Shown: in pieces, positions 11,323-20,913 of the stretch
Layout: every line of letters begins with the position of its first letter
How positions within the stretch are numbered: position 1 is the first letter of the stretch
Assembly (NCBI RefSeq): GCF_005144585.1
Contig: NZ_SSMQ01000026.1
Coordinates: 62,001 to 126,000, forward strand
DNA length: 64,000 bases
Direction of reading: 5' to 3'
From: Polyangium fumosum
GTDB taxonomy: Bacteria > Myxococcota_A > Polyangia > Polyangiales > Polyangiaceae
Translations under genes and position numbers: made by a program
The notes under the pieces: generated by a model
Database searches by the model: none
Seen by the model: only the letters and a program-made list of their open reading frames with translations
Told to the model about the DNA's origin: nothing

Positions 11323-11448
11323 AGGCGTGTTCGAGGACGGCAAGGCTCCGCGCGGGTGGGAGGTAGGGCAACCCTACGTCGCGAGATCGAGCCCGTCTAC
11401 GCGATTACGCAAGAACGACCCACGGATCGGGAAAACTGCCCAGCTCCC

Positions 11449-11784
11449 GCCGACGGCAACGTCGCTCGCGCCAACGGCAACGTCGCTCGCGCCGACGGCA
11501 ACGTCGCTCGCGCCGACGGCAACGTCGCTCGCGCCAACGGCAACGTCGCTCGCGCCAACGGCAACGTCGCTCGCGCCAACGGCAACGTCGCTCGCGCTGA
11601 CGGCAACGTCGCTCGCGCCGACGGCAACGTCGCTCGCGCCAACGGCAACGTCGCTCGCGCTGACGGCAACGTCGCTCGCGCCAACGGCAACGTCGCTCGC
11701 GCTGACGGCAACGTCGCTCGCGCTGACGGCAACGTCGCTCGCGCTGACGGCAACGTCGCTCGCGCTGGCGGCAACGTCGCTCAG
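11449..11784. repeat. Tandem array of sixteen 21-bp hairpin repeats
   Basis: Sixteen head-to-tail copies of a 21-bp unit, GCCGACGGCAACGTCGCTCGC followed by variants, make a 336-bp block with no gene in it. Most copies differ only at positions 3-4 (GCCGAC, GCCAAC or GCTGAC); the last is GCTGGC. In the major type CGACG-GCAA-CGTCG folds as a 5-bp stem with a GCAA tetraloop. Because 21 is a multiple of three and the unit has no stop, all frames stay open, which creates spurious long ORFs. The 577-base gap 11323-11899 holds this array and nothing else recognisable. Confidence 0.95.
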
Positions 11785-12329: not shown

Positions 12330-13013
12330 CTAGAATTTTCCCCGTACCCAGCCCGTGGACGAGGTCACGGTCCGCTGCGAGTGCGGCGCCGTGTCGGGCG
12401 AGCGTTGCGAGAGGGGCGACGCGTCGAAGCTGCGCTGCGACAAAGGCGCGGCATCCGAGGGGCGCGTCAAAGGCAATGAGGCGGCCGACAAGGGCGGGAG
12501 CGACTGGGACGAGGAGCCAGAGAGAGGCGGCACCTCCGAGGGCCGCGTCATGCGCGGCGGGACGTCGGTGCGCGGGCCGGGCGGCGCCGTGCTCGGCCGG
12601 ATGCTCTCCGGGGCGCGGTCCCGCTTCTGCCACGTGCCATTCAGATACTCTTCGACGCGCGAGGCGAGCTCGTCGCCGTCGTTCGTCTTCGGGATGAACC
12701 CCGACGCGCCCGTGCTGAGCACGAGGCTCTGAAGCTCCCGCGCCGGCCGGTCGGAGTGAAAAACGATGGGGCACGAAAGGATGCCCTTCTGGAGGGCCAC
12801 CTCGACCAGCTTGCCCCCGTGCAGCGCCGGCATGTTGACGTCGACGAGCACGAGATCCGGCTGTTCACGCGCCACGGCCGCGCCGAAGCCAAACGGCGAG
12901 TCGAGCGTGATCACCTCGAAACCACGAGATTGCAGGAGCAGCTTGACGAGCTCGCGGCAAATCTCGCTGTCGTCGACCACGAGAATCCGTCGCTTCGTCG
13001 TGCTCGCGCTCAT
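12330..13013 (-). CDS. CheY-like response regulator with Ser/Pro-rich tail
   Basis: A 227-residue protein. Residues 1-125 form a receiver domain: acidic pair DD at 14-15, phospho-acceptor Asp58 in LVLVDVNMPAL, and conserved Lys109 in FIPK. The remaining 100 residues are low-complexity Ser/Pro/Arg with repeated PLSQRS-type motifs and no DNA-binding domain, probably disordered. It lies 150 bases downstream of the CheA-like kinase on the same strand, so it is a likely partner. The role of the tail is unknown. Confidence 0.85.
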   Translation of the reverse strand: MSASTTKRRILVVDDSEICRELVKLLLQSRGFEVITLDSPFGFGAAVAREQPDLVLVDVNMPALHGGKLVEVALQKGILSCPIVFHSDRPARELQSLVLSTGASGFIPKTNDGDELASRVEEYLNGTWQKRDRAPESIRPSTAPPGPRTDVPPRMTRPSEVPPLSGSSSQSLPPLSAASLPLTRPSDAAPLSQRSFDASPLSQRSPDTAPHSQRTVTSSTGWVRGKF

Positions 13014-13163
13014 GGCTGCCTCTCGCTTACCGAGGGTGGTAACGCCCGCGCGTCATGCCCGGGCCATTGACACCATCGTATCTGAGGTGCCGTTGCCACG
13101 GCAAGAAGGACGTAACCCCGAGGCACGATTCGCGCGCGGCGGAAAAACCGGTGTATGGACGGC

Positions 13164-14765
13164 TCAGAATACCTCGGGCCGCACGAGCAGGACGTCGGCC
13201 CCGTCGACCGTCACGATCTCGGCAGGGCAATCGTCGGCCGTCGGGCAGAGGCGCGTCGCTACGGCCGCGTACGGCTCGCCGCCTGCACGAAGCGTGAAGC
13301 GTTCCTCCCCACGCCGAACCTCGATCCGCACGCCCTCGCCGCTCTGCGCGCCGCCCGGTGGCGCCATATCGAAGTATTCCACAGGATCGAGAGCGGGCAT
13401 CCCTCCCTCGGCCGGCAAGACACGAACGCCGGGCCCGGTCGCCACGGCAAGGACGAGGTCGGCGCCCCGCGCAGGAAAACAAATGACGGGGAGCACATGG
13501 CTCGCCTGAGGGACGCGGAGCCGGAGCGTCGTGCCCTGGCCGCGGCGCGTGGTGATGGAGATACACCCGCCGACCCGCTGGATGGCGGCACGCGCCGCGT
13601 CGAGGCCGATGCCGCGGCCCGAGACGTCCGTGACCTCGGTCCGCGTGGACAGGCCGGGACGAAAGAGCAGCTCCGTGAGCTCGTCGTCCTCGGCGCGCAG
13701 GGCGATCTCCGGCGTGGAGAGGCCGAGGTCGATCGCCCGCGCCCGCACGGCTTCGAGGTTCACGCCCGCGCCGTCGTCCTCGACCGAGATCTCGATCTCG
13801 CCGCCCTTTTGCCGCGCCGAGACACAAATCGACGCCTCGGGCGTTTTGCCCGCGGCCCTACGCGCCTCGGGCCGCTCGATGCCGTGATCCACCGCGTTGC
13901 GGAGCGCATGCAGGAGGACGACTTCGACCGACTCGGCGACCTCGGCGCGGACGCGCACGTCGTCCACGGCAAAGGCGACGCGGACCTCCTTGCCGAGGCT
14001 CTCCGCGAGGACACGCGCCGCCTCCTCGTGCGGCGCGAGCCGCGGCGCGAGGGTGACGGCCGAGAGCGAGGTGACCTCCGCGGAGAGCGCGCGGACGACG
14101 TCGCCGAGCCGCCCGCGCGCGCGCCCGGCCGCGACGTGCTCCAAAAACACGCGCACCGCGAGGGCCGCGAGGCGCCGCTGCGTGGCCATCGATACACGAT
14201 CGGGGAGATCCACGACGGCGCTGCGGGACCCGGGCACGCGCGGGGGGTTTTCGGGCTCGTCGGCCGAGACCTCGGCGAGGACCTCCTCGATCTGATGGAC
14301 GAACCCCTCGACATCCATGCCGGCGCTCGGGGCCGCGTCTTTGCGGCGGAGCATCACGATCATGAAGCGGATGGCCATGGTCACGACGAGGTCGACCTCG
14401 TCGGGCACGCGACGGCCGCGCCGCGCCACAGCCGCGACGAGGCCTTCGAGGGCGTGGCAGAGCGTGGCGAGCCCGCCGAAGTGCATCATCCGGGCTTCGC
14501 CTTTGAGCGTGTGCAGCTCCTGCTGCATCGCGGCGGCGACCTCGGGCGCGCCCTCGCCGTGCATGAAGTTGCCCCAATCGCCCTCGACGCGGTCGAGCCG
14601 TTCGAGCGCCACGCCGCGGAAACGGCCGAGCAGCTCGCTGGGAAGCGCGGCCGGGCTCAAAAGGCCTCTCGCCGCACGGCAGGATCGCTCACGGGTTTGG
14701 ACAACAAATGCGCCCCCTGGACGGGAGGCATCATACCCGAAGCAAAGAGCGAAGCGGGAGCGCAA
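13164..14765 (-). CDS. CheA-like hybrid-type histidine kinase
   Basis: About 500-530 residues in CheA order. An N-terminal HPt domain has the phospho-His in ELHTLKGEARMM. A dimerisation helix region is followed by a kinase domain with N-box LLHALRNAVDHGIE, G1 VEDDGAGV and G2 DVSGRGIGLDA, and a C-terminal CheW-like SH3 pair. The CheY/CheB-binding P2 domain is absent. No CheW, CheR, CheB or chemoreceptor is nearby, so this is a non-canonical chemosensory-type pathway, probably phosphorylating the downstream receiver protein. The start is uncertain; a GTG about 20 codons in (VQTRERS) is as plausible as the ATG. Confidence 0.88.
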   Translation of the reverse strand: MRSRFALCFGYDASRPGGAFVVQTRERSCRAARGLLSPAALPSELLGRFRGVALERLDRVEGDWGNFMHGEGAPEVAAAMQQELHTLKGEARMMHFGGLATLCHALEGLVAAVARRGRRVPDEVDLVVTMAIRFMIVMLRRKDAAPSAGMDVEGFVHQIEEVLAEVSADEPENPPRVPGSRSAVVDLPDRVSMATQRRLAALAVRVFLEHVAAGRARGRLGDVVRALSAEVTSLSAVTLAPRLAPHEEAARVLAESLGKEVRVAFAVDDVRVRAEVAESVEVVLLHALRNAVDHGIERPEARRAAGKTPEASICVSARQKGGEIEISVEDDGAGVNLEAVRARAIDLGLSTPEIALRAEDDELTELLFRPGLSTRTEVTDVSGRGIGLDAARAAIQRVGGCISITTRRGQGTTLRLRVPQASHVLPVICFPARGADLVLAVATGPGVRVLPAEGGMPALDPVEYFDMAPPGGAQSGEGVRIEVRRGEERFTLRAGGEPYAAVATRLCPTADDCPAEIVTVDGADVLLVRPEVF

Positions 14766-14821: not shown

Positions 14822-16279
14822 ATGAGGAAGCCGCTCGGGATCGTGCTCTTCCTGTCCGTCGTCGGAATCGTGCCTCGTACGACGCGGGCCGCGGACGGGG
14901 ATGGAAAGGGCGCGCCGGAGGCGCGTGAGCGGACCGCGATGGAGCGGCTCGACGCGCTCGAAGAGGAGAACCGCCGCATGCGCGCGCGCGTGGCGGAGCT
15001 CGAGCGCGCGGCAAAGCAGAACGAAGCGACGCGCGAGAAGGTCGCGAAGCTCGAGGACGACGCGAGCTTCTTCGATCAGCAGATCGCAAAGCTCCTGCCG
15101 ATCGCGAGCCGGCTCGGGGGCTACCTCGACTTCGGGTTTTTCCGGGCGACGGGGACGGGCGCGGGCATACGGAGCGACCGCGGATATCGATATTTCCCGG
15201 AGTACGAGGGCGACATCCCGGCGTCGTGGGTCTTTTATGGCGACCCGCTCTCGACGATGGTGAACGCGCGCGGCGAGCCGGCGGACACGGGCGAATCGCG
15301 GGCGCTCACGTTCGACGCGATCGATAGCGGCGGCAAATCGTCGTTCGCGGTGAACGCGCTGAACATGCAGCTCTTCGCGGCGCCGCACGAGGACCTCACG
15401 CTGACGGCGTCGATCGACTTCGCGCCGCGGGGGCGGGACGTGTCGGTGCCGGGGGATCGTGCGCTCGGCGATTTCATCGACGTGAAGCTCGCGTACGCCG
15501 AGTATCTCGTCCCGATCGAGCGCTTCGAGCTCAGCCTTTATGCCGGGAAGTTCGATTCGGTGCTCGGCTGGGAGTACCGCAGCCGCGAGGCGACCGACCG
15601 GCTCACCGTGACGCCGTCCTTGCTCTGCCGATACACCTGCGGATCGCCGCTCGGGCTGAAGGCGCGCGGGAAATTCTGGGACGGCGCGATGATCCTGAAC
15701 GTGGCCGTGACGAACGGCAGCCATGGAAGCGAGACGTTTCCCTTTCACGGCGAACTCGATCGAAACGACTGGAAGACCGTGGCGGGCCGCATCGCCTCGC
15801 GCGCGCCGCTCGGCGCGGGGCTCGAGGTCGGTCTGTCGGGCTCGATCGGCGCGCAGGACCTGCAAAGCGCCGAGGACGCGATGCACACGCACGTCGGCGT
15901 GGACCTGCACCTCGATTGGCACGATTTCGATGTGACGGCCGAGTTCCTGCAAGGCGTGGTCGATGGGAAGAGCGCGCAGGGGGACACGAAATGTGGCCTC
16001 GCCCCCTGCCTCCGGTACCGCGGAGCTTATGTCCAGGTGGGCTATCGGGTGCTGAACTGGCTCACGCCTTATGCGCGGGTCGACGTGCGCGACGCGGTAC
16101 ATCGGAGCGGCGTGAGCTTCGTCTACCAGTCGCAGGTCCTGCGCGCGACGGCCGGGGTGCGGATGGAGCTCGGTACCCACCTCATCCTGAAGGCCGAGTA
16201 CAATCTGAACCGCGAGCTGGGCCGCGCCCCCCAGTTTCCGAACGACGTGTTCACGAGCTCGATGCTCCTGAAATACTGA
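14822..16279 (+). CDS. Outer-membrane beta-barrel (porin-like) protein
   Basis: A 485-residue protein with a signal peptide (LGIVLFLSVVGIVPRTTRA), then a coiled-coil segment (about residues 40-85, MERLDALEEENRRMRARVAELE) as in trimeric or OprP-like porins. A long stretch of alternating strands ends in an aromatic-terminated strand (SSMLLKY). The final Tyr is the usual outer-membrane assembly signal. It leads an apparent operon with a cupredoxin and a multiheme cytochrome, so a porin supporting redox traffic is plausible but not shown. Confidence 0.8.
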   Translation: MRKPLGIVLFLSVVGIVPRTTRAADGDGKGAPEARERTAMERLDALEEENRRMRARVAELERAAKQNEATREKVAKLEDDASFFDQQIAKLLPIASRLGGYLDFGFFRATGTGAGIRSDRGYRYFPEYEGDIPASWVFYGDPLSTMVNARGEPADTGESRALTFDAIDSGGKSSFAVNALNMQLFAAPHEDLTLTASIDFAPRGRDVSVPGDRALGDFIDVKLAYAEYLVPIERFELSLYAGKFDSVLGWEYRSREATDRLTVTPSLLCRYTCGSPLGLKARGKFWDGAMILNVAVTNGSHGSETFPFHGELDRNDWKTVAGRIASRAPLGAGLEVGLSGSIGAQDLQSAEDAMHTHVGVDLHLDWHDFDVTAEFLQGVVDGKSAQGDTKCGLAPCLRYRGAYVQVGYRVLNWLTPYARVDVRDAVHRSGVSFVYQSQVLRATAGVRMELGTHLILKAEYNLNRELGRAPQFPNDVFTSSMLLKY

Positions 16280-16300
16280 AGCTCCCGAGGAGAATGGCGC

Positions 16301-16999
16301 ATGCGTCTCGGCTCTCGTCTCCCAGGCCTCGTGATCAGCCTCTCCGCGGTGGCGCTCCCGCTCACCGTCTCCTTCTCCCCGCGCGTGAGCCGCGCCGAGG
16401 CGCCGGCCGTGGGCAACGTCTCGGGCGTGGTCACGGTCCTCGTGGACGACGCGCCGAAGGCCGATCGATCGGGCGTCGTGCTCTCCCTGGAGAACGTGCC
16501 CGGCGCGCCCGCCCCGGCCGGCAAGCGCGAGATCCGCCAGAAGAACCTGACGTTCACGCCGGGGCTGATGGTCATCGTGAAGGGGACGACCGTCGAGTTC
16601 CCGAACGACGACAAGGTCTTCCACAACGTCTTTTCGGTCTCGAAGGCGGCGCGCTTCGATCTCGGGCTCTACAAGAGCGGCGAGAGCAAGTCCGTCACGT
16701 TCCGCGAGGCCGGCGTGGTGGACGTCTACTGCAACATCCACCCGCACATGGTCACGAAGATCAAGGTGCTCGACAACGGCTTCTACGCCGTGACGGGCGC
16801 GGATGGATCGTTCCAGATCAAGAACGTGCCCGTGGGGACCTACCCGGTCGTGGCGTGGCAAGCGCACGCGCCGGAGGTGCGCGGCGAGGTGACGGTGACG
16901 GCGGGCGGGTCGGCGACGTTCAAGCCGACGATCACGGAAGGCGCGGCGCCGAAGCGGCACATGAGAAAGGACGGGACGCCATACGGCCGGTACAAGTAA
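16301..16999 (+). CDS. Exported cupredoxin-like protein with carboxypeptidase-regulatory-like domain
   Basis: A 232-residue protein with a signal peptide (cleavage near SRAEA). A plastocyanin/azurin-like copper site is formed by His in KVFHNVF, and Cys and His in YCNIHPHM, whose Met may be the fourth ligand. The last 65 residues (GADGSFQIKNVPVGTYPVVAW) are a beta-sandwich of the kind found after carboxypeptidases. It would be a periplasmic type-1 copper electron carrier. It begins 21 bases after the porin stop and is followed directly by a multiheme cytochrome c gene. Confidence 0.85.
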   Translation: MRLGSRLPGLVISLSAVALPLTVSFSPRVSRAEAPAVGNVSGVVTVLVDDAPKADRSGVVLSLENVPGAPAPAGKREIRQKNLTFTPGLMVIVKGTTVEFPNDDKVFHNVFSVSKAARFDLGLYKSGESKSVTFREAGVVDVYCNIHPHMVTKIKVLDNGFYAVTGADGSFQIKNVPVGTYPVVAWQAHAPEVRGEVTVTAGGSATFKPTITEGAAPKRHMRKDGTPYGRYK

Positions 17000-18195
17000 C
17001 GGCGCTCCTCGCCTGCACGTTCGCCTGCAATCCCTCCGCGCCGCCGGGAGGCTCCGAGCGCGCGGGAACGAACCTCGAAGCGCCCGCGTCCCCGGACAAG
17101 CCCGCCCTCGAACCGCCACGCCCGCGCGCGTTCCCCGCCGATCGATGCGGCGAGTGCCACGGCATGCTCCACGCGGAGTGGAAGACGTCGGGGCACGCGC
17201 GGGCGCGGAACTCGCCGCTCTACGTCGCGATGCGGGATCGCTCGAAGAACGCCAGTTGCGAGGGGTGCCACGCGCCGCTCGCGACGCTCACGGATCCAGC
17301 GGAGAGGGCCGTCGACGAGGGCGTGACGTGCGAGGCGTGCCACGCGATCCGCGACGTCGGGGAGGCGGCGGCCGAGCCACGTTATTCGTTCGACCTCCAA
17401 GGAAACCGGAAGTTCGGGCCGTATTGCGACGGCAAGGACAACTACTTCCACAGGATGGGCTGCGCGCCCTGGTTCCGCGACGCGCGCGTCTGCGGCGGCT
17501 GCCACACGTTCTCGATGCCGCTCGCGGATGGGAAGAGCCTGCCGATCATCAATGAGTACGCCGAGTGGCGCGCGTCGAGCTTCTCGGTGTCGGGGACGGC
17601 GTGCCAGGAGTGCCACATGCCGCCGGAGGTGACCCACGCGGCGACGGGCAGCGAGCGGAAGGTGCGCGTCGGGCATCACGGGTTCATGGGCGAGAAGGGC
17701 GAGCTCGTGCGCAAGGCGCTCGGGATCGTGGCGTCGGCGACCGATCGAGCAGGTACACTGGTGGTCTCCGTGGTGCTGAAGAACGAAGGCGCAGGGCACG
17801 CGGTGCCGTCGGGGTTGCCCGGGAGGCAGGTCGTCGTGCGCGTGCAGGCGCTCGACGAGAAGGGCCACGCGCAGGCGCGCGAGGAGCGCACGATCGGGCG
17901 GGTGCTCGTGGATGAAGCGGGGCGCGAGGTGCCGTTTTACGCGGCGCGAGCGGAGAAGAGCGACGAGCGGATCGCCGCGGGCGAGTCACGCACGTTCACG
18001 TTCGAGCTCGACGCGCCGCGGGCGGGCTCGCTCGTGATCGAGGTGGCGTGGCGCTCCGTGTCGCCCGCGCTCGCGGAGGCGCTCGGCGTGCCCGCGGAGG
18101 AGCGTACGATGGGGAAGATCGAGATGCCGTTCGGCGGAAAACGAAGCGGCAAGGGGCGCGAGCACCTGCCGAAGACGGTGGTGGCGCGGCCATGA
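16981..18195 (+). CDS. Pentaheme cytochrome c (lipoprotein-like)
   Basis: Five c-type heme sites are visible: CGECH, CEGCH, CEACH, CGGCH and CQECH. They lie in the first 230 residues with spacing typical of cytochrome c554/NrfB-like folds. A beta-rich domain of about 140 residues follows (VLKNEGAGHAVPSGLPGRQVVV). A lipobox-like LLAC precedes a Pro/Ser linker, so periplasmic anchoring is likely. The start is unresolved: no ATG, GTG or TTG lies near the expected signal peptide. The nearest upstream in-frame candidate is GTG 16855, inside the cupredoxin gene; the coordinate given is an ATA codon at the edge of the likely signal. The stop overlaps the next ATG (ATGA). Confidence 0.8.
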   Translation: MRPVQVTALLACTFACNPSAPPGGSERAGTNLEAPASPDKPALEPPRPRAFPADRCGECHGMLHAEWKTSGHARARNSPLYVAMRDRSKNASCEGCHAPLATLTDPAERAVDEGVTCEACHAIRDVGEAAAEPRYSFDLQGNRKFGPYCDGKDNYFHRMGCAPWFRDARVCGGCHTFSMPLADGKSLPIINEYAEWRASSFSVSGTACQECHMPPEVTHAATGSERKVRVGHHGFMGEKGELVRKALGIVASATDRAGTLVVSVVLKNEGAGHAVPSGLPGRQVVVRVQALDEKGHAQAREERTIGRVLVDEAGREVPFYAARAEKSDERIAAGESRTFTFELDAPRAGSLVIEVAWRSVSPALAEALGVPAEERTMGKIEMPFGGKRSGKGREHLPKTVVARP

Positions 18196-19985
18196 AGTTC
18201 CAGAGCGCGTTGCTGCTCTGGATCGTGCTCCTCATCGCGGCGATCACGGTGGCCACGGCGGGAAGCGCGGCGTTCGTGCTGGAGCGGCGCGCAAGGGAGG
18301 AGCTCGGGGAGGCGCTCGAACGGAGCGCGCGCGTGTTCGAATCGCATCGCACCGAGCGGCTGCGCGCGCACGCGACGAAGGCGCACGTGGTGGCGGAAGA
18401 GCCGCGGCTCAAGGCCGTCGTGGCGACGGAGGACGTGTCGCCGGAGACGGTCTACGGCGTGGCCGACGAGCTCTGCAAAGCCGTGAAGAGTGATCTCTTC
18501 CTGATGACGGACGGGACGGGGATCCTGCTCGCGGACGTGGCCGATCCGAAGGCGTCGGGCTTCGACATGTCGAAGGATCCGATCGTGGCGGGCGCGCTGC
18601 GCGAAGGCGAGAGGTCCGGGCTCTGGACGAACGAGGGGAAGCTCTACGAGGTGGTCGCGCGGCGGCTCTCGTTCGGGACCGAGACGGTCGGCGTGCTGGT
18701 GCTCGGCTTCAAGCTCGACCATGCGCTCGCCGAGGAGGTGCGTCTCCAGACGGGGAGCCTCGTGGCGGTGACGGATGGGGCCACGGTGGTGGCGCATTCG
18801 AAGCTCGAAGATGGGAGGGACGCGTCGAGCGAGGTGCTCCGGATGTTCACGACGCCGTCCGCGCCCGAGGGCGGGCCCTATCTGTCGACGTCGCGGACGC
18901 TGGATACGGGCCCGGGCGCGAAGCGGACCGTTCACCTCGCGCGTTCGCTCGATCGCGCGCTCGTGCCGTCCCGCGAGCTCGAGGTGCGCGTGGCGCTCAT
19001 CGCGCTCGTCGCGCTCGCGGCTGCGGCGGCGCTCGCGATCGTGCTCTCGCGCAGGCTCTCGCGCCCGCTCGACGGGCTCATGGCGTTCGTGGGCGACGTG
19101 GCGCGCGGGAAGCTCGACACACAAGCGACCACGTCCGGGCCGACGGAGATCCGCGCGCTCGGCGAGGCGATGAACCGGATGGCGCGCGAGCTCGCGGAGT
19201 CACGCGAGCAGATGGCGGCGAAGGAGCGGCTCGAAAAGGAGCTCGAGATCAGCGCGCGGATCCAGACGTCGATCCTGCCGCGGCGGCTCGACGTGCCAGG
19301 GCTCGACGTGGCGGCGCGGATGATCCCGGCGAGCGAGGTCGGCGGCGACTACTACGACGTGTTCCCCGTGGAAGGCGGCGGCATCCTCGCGATCGGCGAC
19401 GTGGCCGGGCACGGCCTGCAGTCGGGGCTCGTGATGCTCATGGTGCAAAGCGCGATCGCCGCGCTCGGGCGGGAGGATCCGTCGGCGCGGCCGAAGGACC
19501 TCGTGCGCGTGCTGAACCTCGTGCTCTACGACAACATCCGCAACCGCCTGCGCAACGACGAGCACGTCACGCTGACGGTGATGCGCTACCACCGGAGCGG
19601 ACGCGTGGTGTTCGCCGGGGCGCACGAGGACATCCTGATCCTGCGCGCGCGCACCGGGAAGGTCGAGATGATCCCCACGCTCGGCCCCTGGGTCGGCGCG
19701 ATGCGCGACGTCGCGCGGACGGTGCAAGACGACGAGCTCGCCCTCGAAGACGGCGACGTGATGGTGCTTTACACGGACGGCGTGACGGAGGCGCGGAGCG
19801 CGTCGGGCGAGATGTACGGGATGGAGCGGCTCACCCAGCAAATCCAGGCGCTCGCGGGCGAGCCCGTGGAGCGAATCCGCGACGTGATCCTCGACGACGT
19901 GGCCCGCTTCGCCCGCGTCCAGGAGGACGACGTGACGCTCGTCGTCGTGCGCTTCAGGGCGAGCGAGACGAGCGCCGAAGGCTGA
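18192..19985 (+). CDS. RsbU/SpoIIE-type PP2C phosphatase with sensor and HAMP domains
   Basis: A 597-residue membrane protein: N-terminal transmembrane helix, an extracytoplasmic Cache-like sensor (about residues 40-270), a second transmembrane helix (ALIALVALAAAAALAIV), then a HAMP linker. A SpoIIE-type phosphatase domain has the metal motifs EVGGDYYDV, IGDVAGHG and LYTDGVTEA. Such enzymes dephosphorylate anti-anti-sigma STAS proteins. The next two genes encode the kinase/anti-sigma and the STAS protein, so this is the sensory input of a partner switch. Its start overlaps the cytochrome stop by four bases. Confidence 0.93.
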   Translation: MKFQSALLLWIVLLIAAITVATAGSAAFVLERRAREELGEALERSARVFESHRTERLRAHATKAHVVAEEPRLKAVVATEDVSPETVYGVADELCKAVKSDLFLMTDGTGILLADVADPKASGFDMSKDPIVAGALREGERSGLWTNEGKLYEVVARRLSFGTETVGVLVLGFKLDHALAEEVRLQTGSLVAVTDGATVVAHSKLEDGRDASSEVLRMFTTPSAPEGGPYLSTSRTLDTGPGAKRTVHLARSLDRALVPSRELEVRVALIALVALAAAAALAIVLSRRLSRPLDGLMAFVGDVARGKLDTQATTSGPTEIRALGEAMNRMARELAESREQMAAKERLEKELEISARIQTSILPRRLDVPGLDVAARMIPASEVGGDYYDVFPVEGGGILAIGDVAGHGLQSGLVMLMVQSAIAALGREDPSARPKDLVRVLNLVLYDNIRNRLRNDEHVTLTVMRYHRSGRVVFAGAHEDILILRARTGKVEMIPTLGPWVGAMRDVARTVQDDELALEDGDVMVLYTDGVTEARSASGEMYGMERLTQQIQALAGEPVERIRDVILDDVARFARVQEDDVTLVVVRFRASETSAEG

Positions 19986-20041
19986 GATAGATTGAGCGTC
20001 GCGCTCCGCACAGCCGCGACCTGAATCCAGGAACGCGAAAG

Positions 20042-20536
20042 ATGATGACCGAGACACCGACCGCGTTCGAGCTGACGTTCCAGCCCAATGTCGAGCTCAT
20101 CTCCATCGTTCGTAGGTTCCTGTCCGACTTTTACGAGCGGATGATCGAGGACCACGACACGGTGTCGCGCATCGCGCTCGCGACCCACGAGCTCCTGGAG
20201 AACGCCGTCAAATACGCGAGCGACGGCGCGACGTTTTTGTCCGTCAAGTTCGAGCCGGGAGAGGCATCGAGCACGGTCTCCATCCGGCTCATGAACCGGG
20301 CGAAGCCCGAGCACATCGCCGCGGTTGCCACTATCTTCGGGGAGATGAGCCTGCACGACGATCCCTTCGGCCACTACCAGATCGCGATGGCGCGCAGCGC
20401 CAAGCGGAAGGTGGGCTCGGGGCTCGGCCTCGTGCGCGTGCGTGCCGAAGGAGAGATGACGATGAGCCACACCATCGAGGACGACAGGGTCACGATCCTG
20501 GCGCAGACGACCGTCACGGCGCGGAGGCGCGGGTGA
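20042..20536 (+). CDS. RsbW-like anti-sigma factor / serine kinase (HATPase)
   Basis: A 164-residue GHKL ATPase. The N-box HELLENAVKYA is near residue 57, and a degenerate lid and G2 (KVGSGLGLVRV) follow. RsbW-type proteins bind a sigma factor or other target and phosphorylate a STAS partner. It lies between the SpoIIE-type phosphatase and the STAS protein with a four-base overlap (GTGA) into the latter, giving the standard partner-switch set. No ECF or SigB-like sigma factor is adjacent, so the target is unknown. Confidence 0.88.
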   Translation: MMTETPTAFELTFQPNVELISIVRRFLSDFYERMIEDHDTVSRIALATHELLENAVKYASDGATFLSVKFEPGEASSTVSIRLMNRAKPEHIAAVATIFGEMSLHDDPFGHYQIAMARSAKRKVGSGLGLVRVRAEGEMTMSHTIEDDRVTILAQTTVTARRRG

Positions 20537-20913
20537 GCGCGGCGTCGGATCTCTCGGTCGCGCTCCGCGACTTCTCGGCGAACGTGCGCGCGGAGGGCCG
20601 CTCGCTCGTCCTGCGCCTCTCGGGCAACGCGGACATGGCCGCCAAAGACAGCCTGGATACGCTGCTGCCGCGCGTGCACGCCGAGGCGCAGCGGATCAGC
20701 GCCACCGAGGTGCAGGTGGATTTCCGCAACCTCGAGTTCATGAACTCGTCCTGCTTCAAGAGCTTCGTGACTTGGATCAGCGAGATCGGCGATCTCGAGC
20801 GGAGCAAGGAGTACAAGATCCGGCTCCTGTCGAACCCGGAGATGCACTGGCAGCGCCGCAGCCTGCACGCGCTCCGATGCTTCGCGGTGGATCTCATCTC
20901 CGTCGAGTCGTGA
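20533..20913 (+). CDS. STAS-domain anti-anti-sigma factor
   Basis: A 126-residue STAS protein starting at GTG 20533. The phosphorylation loop reads VDFRNLEFMNSSCF, in which the MNSS serines correspond to the MDSSG site of SpoIIAA/RsbV. It would release the RsbW-like partner's target when unphosphorylated. Translation is coupled to the upstream gene by the GTGA overlap. The C-terminus (RRSLHALRCFAVDLISVE) is slightly extended. Confidence 0.88.
   Translation: MSAASDLSVALRDFSANVRAEGRSLVLRLSGNADMAAKDSLDTLLPRVHAEAQRISATEVQVDFRNLEFMNSSCFKSFVTWISEIGDLERSKEYKIRLLSNPEMHWQRRSLHALRCFAVDLISVES

What the first reader, a model, noticed from the sequence alone, without database searches (positions are those of the whole stretch)
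14822..20913. Redox chain fused by context to a partner-switch module
Porin, cupredoxin, pentaheme cytochrome, SpoIIE-type sensor phosphatase, RsbW-like and STAS genes are on one strand; the cytochrome stop and phosphatase start overlap (ATGA). Coupling an electron-transfer chain to a sigma-type partner switch through translational overlap suggests redox-responsive gene control or extracellular electron transfer regulation.
Basis: partly seen in the sequence, partly recalled or inferred. Interest (0 to 1): 0.6.

Follow-up and report, generated by a model that had tools for sequence, protein, structure and literature searches.

The report
Copper-protein receptor cassette with swappable outputs
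A run of six genes in a soil myxobacterium links an outer-membrane pore, a copper protein and a five-heme cytochrome to a membrane receptor and its phosphorylation switch, and relatives in other bacteria keep the copper protein and receptor together but swap the receptor's signalling end, which points to a family of envelope sensors that we did not find described.

Summary
In detail: six same-strand genes (14822-20913) encode a porin, a type-1 copper cupredoxin, a pentaheme lipoprotein cytochrome, a dCache-HAMP-SpoIIE (PP2C) receptor, a GHKL ATPase and a STAS protein. The ATGA overlap is real; 19 of 22 loci keep a 4-nt overlap before the receptor gene. All six genes are conserved in order in 5 of 5 same-genus genomes and one other genus; porin-cupredoxin-cytochrome-receptor recurs across Myxococcota.

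The interpretation needs changing. The switch resembles SiaABC, not a sigma switch, and the barrel model looks like a diffusion porin, not an electron conduit. The wider pattern is more interesting: the cupredoxin is paired with a transmembrane dCache receptor whose output is exchanged (SpoIIE, cyclase, histidine kinase, Hpt-HATPase, GGDEF-EAL). A profile search with the receptor domain alone led to 20 further loci; 18 have a cupredoxin-like gene directly upstream, in copper-free form. Best reading: the cupredoxin is the receptor's co-receptor and reports redox, copper or substrate state. All evidence is genomic; no expression, binding or phenotype is shown. Six searches of open papers aimed at such a pairing found no description.

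The parts
14822..16279 (+). Outer-membrane beta-barrel porin, 485 aa, signal peptide, N-terminal coiled coil 34-91, 16 long strands in the model
   Evidence: BBP2 23 bits, below cut-off 26.2; model pLDDT 71; OmpU/OmpF/OprO class; found upstream of the cupredoxin in relatives
16301..16999 (+). Secreted cupredoxin with C-terminal CarboxypepD_reg-like domain; Cu ligands His108, Cys144, His147, Met150; near-invariant tail H.RKDGTPYGRYK in the cassette
   Evidence: Copper-bind 31.1 bits over cut-off 21.2; four ligands present in 73 of 73 cupredoxins outside the MXAN_5187-paired group
16981..18195 (+). Pentaheme c-type cytochrome, predicted lipoprotein; non-standard start, ATA at 16981 is the best candidate
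   Evidence: (ExtKL 61 bits, cut-off 250)
18192..18195 (+). ATGA stop/start overlap of cytochrome and receptor genes
   Evidence: a start codon in 4-nt overlap with the previous stop in 19 of 22 loci
18192..19985 (+). Transmembrane receptor: TM, periplasmic dCache domain (about 30-262), TM, HAMP, SpoIIE-type PP2C phosphatase
   Evidence: SpoIIE 133.6 bits, HAMP 38.3; DctB dCache Z 17.9
20042..20536 (+). GHKL ATPase / presumed kinase, slr1658-superfamily-like (SiaB-like role)
   Evidence: E-L-x-E-N box in 26 of 26 aligned rows, duplicates included
20533..20913 (+). STAS protein, slr1659-superfamily-like (SiaC-like role), presumed phospho-acceptor Ser in FMNSS
   Evidence: NS[SA] in 22 of 23 rows, duplicates included

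Best explanation
The operon is a sensory cassette of the cell envelope. A porin admits solutes; a secreted type-1 copper protein and a pentaheme lipoprotein cytochrome form a small redox or substrate-handling pair in the periplasm; and the state of the copper protein (redox, copper loading, or complex with the cytochrome) is read by direct contact with the periplasmic dCache domain of the transmembrane receptor, much as LuxP is read by LuxQ (comparison recalled). The receptor then changes the activity of its cytoplasmic SpoIIE/PP2C phosphatase, which dephosphorylates the STAS protein; the ATPase re-phosphorylates it; the STAS protein's phosphorylation decides its partner and thus a downstream target that is not encoded in the operon. 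Shown: gene order, conservation, domains, copper ligands, pairing of cupredoxin and receptor with several different outputs. Inferred: physical contact, what is sensed, direction of electron flow, phosphotransfer, the target.
For: Order conserved. Receptor output swapped beside the same cupredoxin family: SpoIIE, guanylate cyclase (11 of 11 confirmed by Pfam), HisKA-HATPase, Hpt-HATPase, GGDEF-EAL, with the periplasmic domain clearly detected in at least one member of each group (scores in several cyclases, kinase L109 and L121 are weak). Matching receivers: STAS and ATPase genes in 18 of 20 loci whose SpoIIE domain was seen and in 0 of 17 other-output loci; cNMP-binding genes beside the 2 of 11 cyclase loci checked; a sigma-54 response regulator beside kinase L088. 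Reverse test: 15 of 86 receptor-domain hits lie just downstream of one of 71 cupredoxin hits, 0.02 expected by chance (10 of the 15 are the cassette loci themselves). Of 20 further receptor hits fetched, 18 have a cupredoxin-like gene directly upstream. In that group the copper ligands are lost yet the pairing persists, which argues for contact with the receptor rather than electron transfer alone.
Against: No expression, binding or phenotype data. dCache domains usually bind small molecules directly (recalled), and the best structural match is DctB, solved with malonate and succinate. Some relatives of the porin and cupredoxin lack a receptor: porin-cupredoxin-CCP/MauG in L062 and L063, and S. 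meliloti pSymA. Of 54 cupredoxin loci from one search, 31 have an adjacent two-TM receptor, 1 (L086) an adjacent hybrid kinase with a single-Cache hit, 10 only a more distant Ser/Thr kinase gene with weak domain similarity at best, and 12 none, 4 of these cut by a contig end.
Confidence: 0.55

Rival explanations
1. A metabolic or respiratory operon with its own regulator: the porin imports a substrate, cupredoxin and cytochrome oxidise or reduce something, and the dCache receptor binds that small molecule directly; the redox proteins are targets, not inputs.
For: dCache fold closest to DctB and other small-ligand receptors; porin model of the diffusion class; porin-cupredoxin pairs with a MauG/CCP-type protein and no receptor exist (L062, L063).
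Against: Cupredoxin-receptor pairing persists without the cytochrome (L118) and with barrels and heme proteins of other families, and persists even where the cupredoxin has lost its copper ligands.
Confidence: 0.27
2. A copper-sensing system: the cupredoxin acts as a periplasmic copper receptor whose loading is read by the receptor.
For: All four type-1 copper ligands present in 73 of 73 cupredoxins outside the MXAN_5187-paired group.
Against: No copper export or resistance gene turned up among the neighbours given to Pfam, though no dedicated search was made; a heme protein accompanies two of the versions (pentaheme cytochrome, truncated globin), which copper sensing does not need.
Confidence: 0.1
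3. One reading: an extracellular electron conduit coupled to a sigma-factor switch.
For: The best-scoring curated model of the cytochrome is ExtKL (61 bits), a name shared with the Geobacter extHIJKL conduit cluster (PMC5585712, passages); SpoIIE, ATPase and STAS make up a partner switch.
Against: No sigma gene in the unit; 16-strand barrel model; ExtKL score far under its cut-off of 250; cytochrome dispensable.
Confidence: 0.04

Closest known systems
SiaABC(D) partner switch of Pseudomonas aeruginosa
   Same: HAMP-PP2C membrane phosphatase, small kinase and small phosphoprotein in one operon; acceptor region of the STAS protein (FMNSS) resembles the SiaC T68 peptide LLYLNTSSIK (PMC7647112, passages)
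   Different: Phosphatase scores far below the SiaA cut-off, the STAS protein gives no SiaC hit; no diguanylate cyclase SiaD in the unit; carries porin, cupredoxin and cytochrome
LuxP-LuxQ type receptors (periplasmic protein read by a tandem Cache receptor)
   Same: dCache receptor with a periplasmic protein partner; LuxQ is among the structural matches (Z 13.0, rmsd 3.3 over 194 residues)
   Different: Partner is a cupredoxin, not a sugar-binding-type protein; contact not shown; the LuxP/LuxQ mechanism itself is recalled
MXAN_5187 family pairs of myxobacteria
   Same: Same receptor domain with a cupredoxin-fold gene directly upstream
   Different: Copper ligands lost; C-terminal MXAN_5187 domain instead of an enzymatic output; family name tested for two proteins only
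Porin-cytochrome conduits (Mtr, Geobacter ext clusters)
   Same: Outer-membrane barrel and multiheme lipoprotein cytochrome side by side
   Different: 16-strand barrel model of the diffusion class, five hemes, cupredoxin and receptor in the same unit; Mtr features recalled

Membership tests
SiaABCD system | Phosphatase is SiaA (NCBIfam NF038263) | tested here: not met
   69.5 bits, cut-off 700
SiaABCD system | Phosphoprotein of SiaC family (PF09345) | tested here: not met
   Window STAS gives STAS_2/STAS below cut-off and no SiaC; relative L071 gives SiaC 21 bits, cut-off 24.5
SiaABCD system | Phospho-acceptor aligned to SiaC T68 | tested here: inconclusive
   NS[SA] in 22 of 23 rows (L118 has SSS); compared by eye with the peptide in PMC7647112, SiaC itself not aligned
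SiaABCD system | Diguanylate cyclase SiaD in the operon | tested here: not met
   Operon ends with STAS at 20913; the genes that I take as real to the right, from 22137 down, are on the - strand (by eye)
RsbW/SpoIIAB sigma-factor partner switch | Anti-sigma ATPase of RsbW family | tested here: not met
   RsbW 20.1 bits, cut-off 155
RsbW/SpoIIAB sigma-factor partner switch | Sigma factor as target | not testable with these tools
   No sigma gene in the unit; partner unknown
Type-1 copper cupredoxin | Copper-bind domain and His-Cys-His-Met ligands | tested here: met
   31.1 bits over 21.2; ligands in 73 of 73; copper binding itself untested
SpoIIE-type PP2C phosphatase | PF07228 over cut-off | tested here: met
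   133.6 bits, cut-off 25
dCache receptor | Tandem Cache fold between two TM helices | tested here: met
   Model pLDDT 84, DctB Z 17.9, 201 residues, rmsd 4.6; Pfam dCache_3 under cut-off in the window protein (15.4 of 25.7) but over it in L118, L079, L115, L114, L116, L075 and L120
Porin-cytochrome conduit (Mtr/ext) | Very large barrel that houses a cytochrome | tested here: inconclusive
   Model of moderate quality (pLDDT 71) has 16 long strands; best matches are diffusion porins
ExtKL cytochrome | NCBIfam NF040886 over cut-off | tested here: not met
   61.2 bits, cut-off 250

The most novel reading that the evidence does not exclude
Cupredoxin-coupled receptors are a general class of bacterial signalling not yet described: a blue copper protein, fed by a heme protein and served by a dedicated outer-membrane barrel, acts as redox-switched co-receptor of a dCache receptor whose output (PP2C switch, cAMP/cGMP, c-di-GMP, His-Asp relay) is exchanged between lineages, and a copper-less kind (MXAN_5187 pairs) has kept the protein contact without the redox chemistry.
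Probability: 0.4. Interest if true: 0.85.

Novelty: new variant of a known kind. Interest (0 to 1): 0.62.

Why it matters
If right, bacteria in several phyla read the state of a periplasmic copper protein through a transmembrane receptor and plug the same input into several different second-messenger or phosphorylation systems. That would give function to several families now named only by domain (cupredoxin/CarboxypepD_reg proteins, DUF3034 barrels, MXAN_5187 proteins) and offers a direct, testable route from envelope redox chemistry to gene control and behaviour.

Tried and rejected
Chance clustering: rejected by conserved order and the reverse test. Sigma switch: no sigma gene, RsbW models far below cut-off. 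Electron conduit: barrel model and dispensable cytochrome speak against it. Cytochrome as the core: cytochrome hits occur in 47 of 59 genomes searched, own included, but the 5 weak-hit loci examined (L048-L052) gave no tblastn hit to any of the other five proteins. Cupredoxin-cytochrome fusion by frameshift: judged unlikely because a lipobox follows the junction in the rows displayed, and no clear slippery heptamer was seen by eye. Ser/Thr kinases near one cupredoxin clade (10 loci): receptor-domain similarity weak (best about 7e-6 in a set of 22 sequences); not claimed. The promoter scan is of little value at 69% GC.

Literature: searches returned no paper; one returned two, of which I saw the listing only; one (DUF3034) two, listing only; some concern Sia, myxobacterial cytochromes and ATA starts. 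I read passages of PMC7647112, PMC5585712 and PMC12834913. Subscription papers and preprints are not held.

Mended on re-check: L075 carried the label SpoIIE in the tree though its contig ends before the output domain, and L086 the label none though a hybrid kinase lies directly downstream; the tree's count of label changes was not redone. The STAS/ATPase count is therefore 18 of 20, not 18 of 21. The GTG 144 nt upstream in the cytochrome frame came out only.

Rows dropped or limited: L065-L067, L070, L074, L076, L079 and L081 repeat other loci and were left out of the tree and of counts of distinct loci; the CxxCH count (30 of 31 with five) and the motif counts include such repeats. One MXAN-type cupredoxin (L170) was too short for the tree. 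The tree sample is not random. 39 of the 86 receptor hits were read in their surroundings: 10 cassette loci, 9, 20. The receptor profile A2 has 13 rows, three of them from non-SpoIIE receptors. Several other-output loci end soon after the receptor (L114, L047), so an absent STAS gene there means little.
Full report
Setting. The window is C119:62001-126000 of an unnamed 13 Mb genome, about 69% GC over the window. Its closest named relatives are Polyangium isolates, with which the cupredoxin is 88-91% identical, so it is a polyangial myxobacterium.

Observation. Six genes lie on the + strand. Porin 14822-16279; cupredoxin 16301-16999; cytochrome ending at 18195 with five CxxCH; receptor 18192-19985; ATPase 20042-20536; STAS 20533-20913. 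Pfam: Copper-bind 31.1 bits (cut-off 21.2), SpoIIE 133.6 (25), HAMP 38.3 (25), Cytochrome_C554 25.1 (20.8); porin BBP2, HATPase and STAS all below cut-off. NCBIfam gives slr1658 (35.9 bits, cut-off 100) and slr1659 (34.9, cut-off 100) for the last two, SiaA 69.5 (cut-off 700) for the receptor and ExtKL 61.2 (cut-off 250) for the cytochrome. The ATGA overlap at 18192-18195 is real.

Conservation. tblastn shows all six genes in the same order in 5 of 5 same-genus genomes and in G036; porin-cupredoxin-cytochrome-receptor in order is kept in G011, G014 and G045, the last from another family. A search of named genomes with the cupredoxin alignment gave 54 loci. L065-L083 carry porin, cupredoxin, cytochrome and receptor in that order, except where the contig ends (L073, L080 lack sequence for the receptor); in L080-L083 one to three kb lie between porin and cupredoxin. 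L118 has porin, cupredoxin and receptor without the cytochrome. In 19 of 22 loci with a receptor gene, a start codon overlaps the previous stop by 4 nt (exceptions L047, L060, L082; six of the 22 are one genus). The cassette is patchy: cupredoxin hits at cassette level occur in 10 of 59 genomes, own included.

Outputs are exchanged. Next to cupredoxins of the wider family the receptor's cytoplasmic part is SpoIIE (Myxococcota), guanylate/adenylate cyclase (L084, L087, L089, L090, L091, L105, L112, L114-L117, all by Pfam), histidine kinase (L088, L109; also L086, a hybrid kinase with a single-Cache hit), dCache-HAMP-Hpt-HATPase (L079/L047, in a full porin-cupredoxin-cytochrome cassette) or GGDEF-EAL (L120, L121 by Pfam, L122 by a local profile; plasmids of Caballeronia, Novosphingobium, Paraburkholderia). 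A profile of the periplasmic domain built from 14 SpoIIE receptors hits L088 (kinase), L114-L117 (cyclases) and L120 and L122 (GGDEF-EAL) at E below 1e-13 in a set of 22 sequences; L121, L109, L112 and several cyclases are weak or below threshold; L047 is hit at 1e-68. On a cupredoxin tree of 80 rows the labels are clustered but still need 17 changes (shuffled mean 46.9), so outputs have been exchanged several times (two labels were later found to need correction, see Tried and rejected).

Partners follow the output. Both STAS and ATPase genes are found in 18 of 20 distinct loci whose SpoIIE domain was seen (missing: L061, none within the stretch held; L069, contig end) and in 0 of 17 loci with other outputs. 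The two gammaproteobacterial cyclase loci checked of 11, L115 and L116, have cNMP-binding genes downstream; the kinase L088 has a sigma-54 response regulator. Upstream sits a predicted outer-membrane barrel of varying family: BBP2 porin, DUF3034 (354 bits), an unnamed family in L084/L089/L090/L101/L103/L104/L117, others in L115 and L088; no similarity between these families at E up to 1 (barrel nature of the unnamed ones is inferred from a signal peptide and, in most, a terminal aromatic residue). A truncated globin gene lies between barrel and cupredoxin in L120 and L122 and, divergently with the barrel, beside the cupredoxin in L121.

Reverse test. In the same 59 genomes, 71 cupredoxin hits (E up to 1e-6) and 86 receptor-domain hits (E up to 1e-3) were found in separate searches; 15 receptor hits lie within 2.5 kb downstream of a cupredoxin hit on the same strand, against 0.02 expected. 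Ten of the 15 are cassette loci; five are new. These five and four weaker receptor hits were then read: 8 of the 9 have a cupredoxin hit directly upstream with the first profile, and the ninth, L169 in the own genome, with a profile of the copper-less kind. Of 20 further hits fetched in order of rank, 18 have such a gene directly upstream; L181 and L188 gave no hit to any of the three local profiles. The two receptors tested, L169 and L164, are MXAN_5187 family proteins (502 and 253 bits, cut-off 200).

Copper site. His, Cys, His and Met ligands are present in 73 of 73 cupredoxins outside the MXAN_5187-paired group; in that group Cys is replaced by Asp in 7 of 7 aligned rows and the C..H..M motif is absent from the matched stretch in 19 of 19 loci. 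A receptor pairing that persists without the metal site suggests that the pair works by protein contact.

Structures. The receptor's periplasmic part folds as a dCache domain (pLDDT 84); best matches DctB (Z 17.9), with LuxQ at 13.0. The porin model (pLDDT 71) has an N-terminal coiled coil and 16 long strands and matches OmpU, OmpF and OprO.

The switch. The ATPases keep an E-L-x-E-N box (26 of 26 rows) and the STAS proteins an N-S-[SA] step (22 of 23 rows) where the SiaC peptide reads LNTSS (PMC7647112, passages; SiaC not aligned). In that paper SiaA, SiaB and SiaC form a PP2C/kinase/phosphoprotein partner switch, proposed to act through the diguanylate cyclase SiaD (passages). The present module works like it but does not pass its membership tests. 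In L045, L071 and L077 a Ser/Thr kinase fused to an FGE-sulfatase domain lies between phosphatase and STAS.

Cytochrome start. The cytochrome frame overlaps the end of the cupredoxin gene in the -1 frame. In L040 (same genus) and L071 the open frame holds no ATG, GTG or TTG at all before the end of the signal peptide; in the window, L039, L041, L042, L072, L073 and L075 the only upstream one within 600 nt is at -144, deep inside the cupredoxin gene. The common reading is [IL]R[PSA][LV]Q followed by a hydrophobic stretch and a lipobox, whose arginine is encoded inside the cupredoxin gene. ATA at 16981, 9 nt after AGAAAGGA (the only AGA among 171 Arg codons counted in the operon), is the best candidate start; the CCATAC context is also part of the conserved cupredoxin tail, so its conservation is not independent proof, and L045 and L078 read CTA there.

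Verdict. Everything rests on sequence, gene order and models.

Noticed in passing
window 16850-17050; L040, L071 and others: Cytochrome gene without a standard start codon: none at all in the open frame of L040 and L071, only a distant one (-144) in the window and several relatives; a lipoprotein signal seems to begin inside the cupredoxin gene in the -1 frame, ATA (CTA in L045 and L078) as likely start.
   Followed up: partly
L169 2083-4597 (G000:C154) and L164-L168, L170, L171, L178, L180-L199: Receptors with the same dCache-like domain (MXAN_5187 family in the two tested) carry a cupredoxin-fold gene directly upstream in 27 of 29 loci read, without the copper ligands where checked.
   Followed up: yes
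L120, L121, L122: DUF3034 barrel, truncated globin, cupredoxin and HAMP-GGDEF-EAL gene clusters on plasmids of Caballeronia, Novosphingobium and Paraburkholderia.
   Followed up: partly
L062 226-3126; L063 7626-10750: Porin-cupredoxin pairs followed by a CCP/MauG-type diheme protein and no receptor.
   Followed up: no
L045 11872-14538; L071 11637-14330; L077 11601-14507: Ser/Thr kinase fused to an FGE-sulfatase domain between the SpoIIE receptor and the STAS/ATPase pair.
   Followed up: no
window 11443-11782: Tandem array of a 21-bp unit, 16.2 copies, 95% matches, open in several frames.
   Followed up: partly
window 12330-14765, - strand: Divergent Hpt plus HATPase (CheA-like) gene 13164-14765 with a response-regulator-like ORF behind it (by eye); the kinase-profile hit beside the operon is also seen in all five same-genus loci.
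   Followed up: partly
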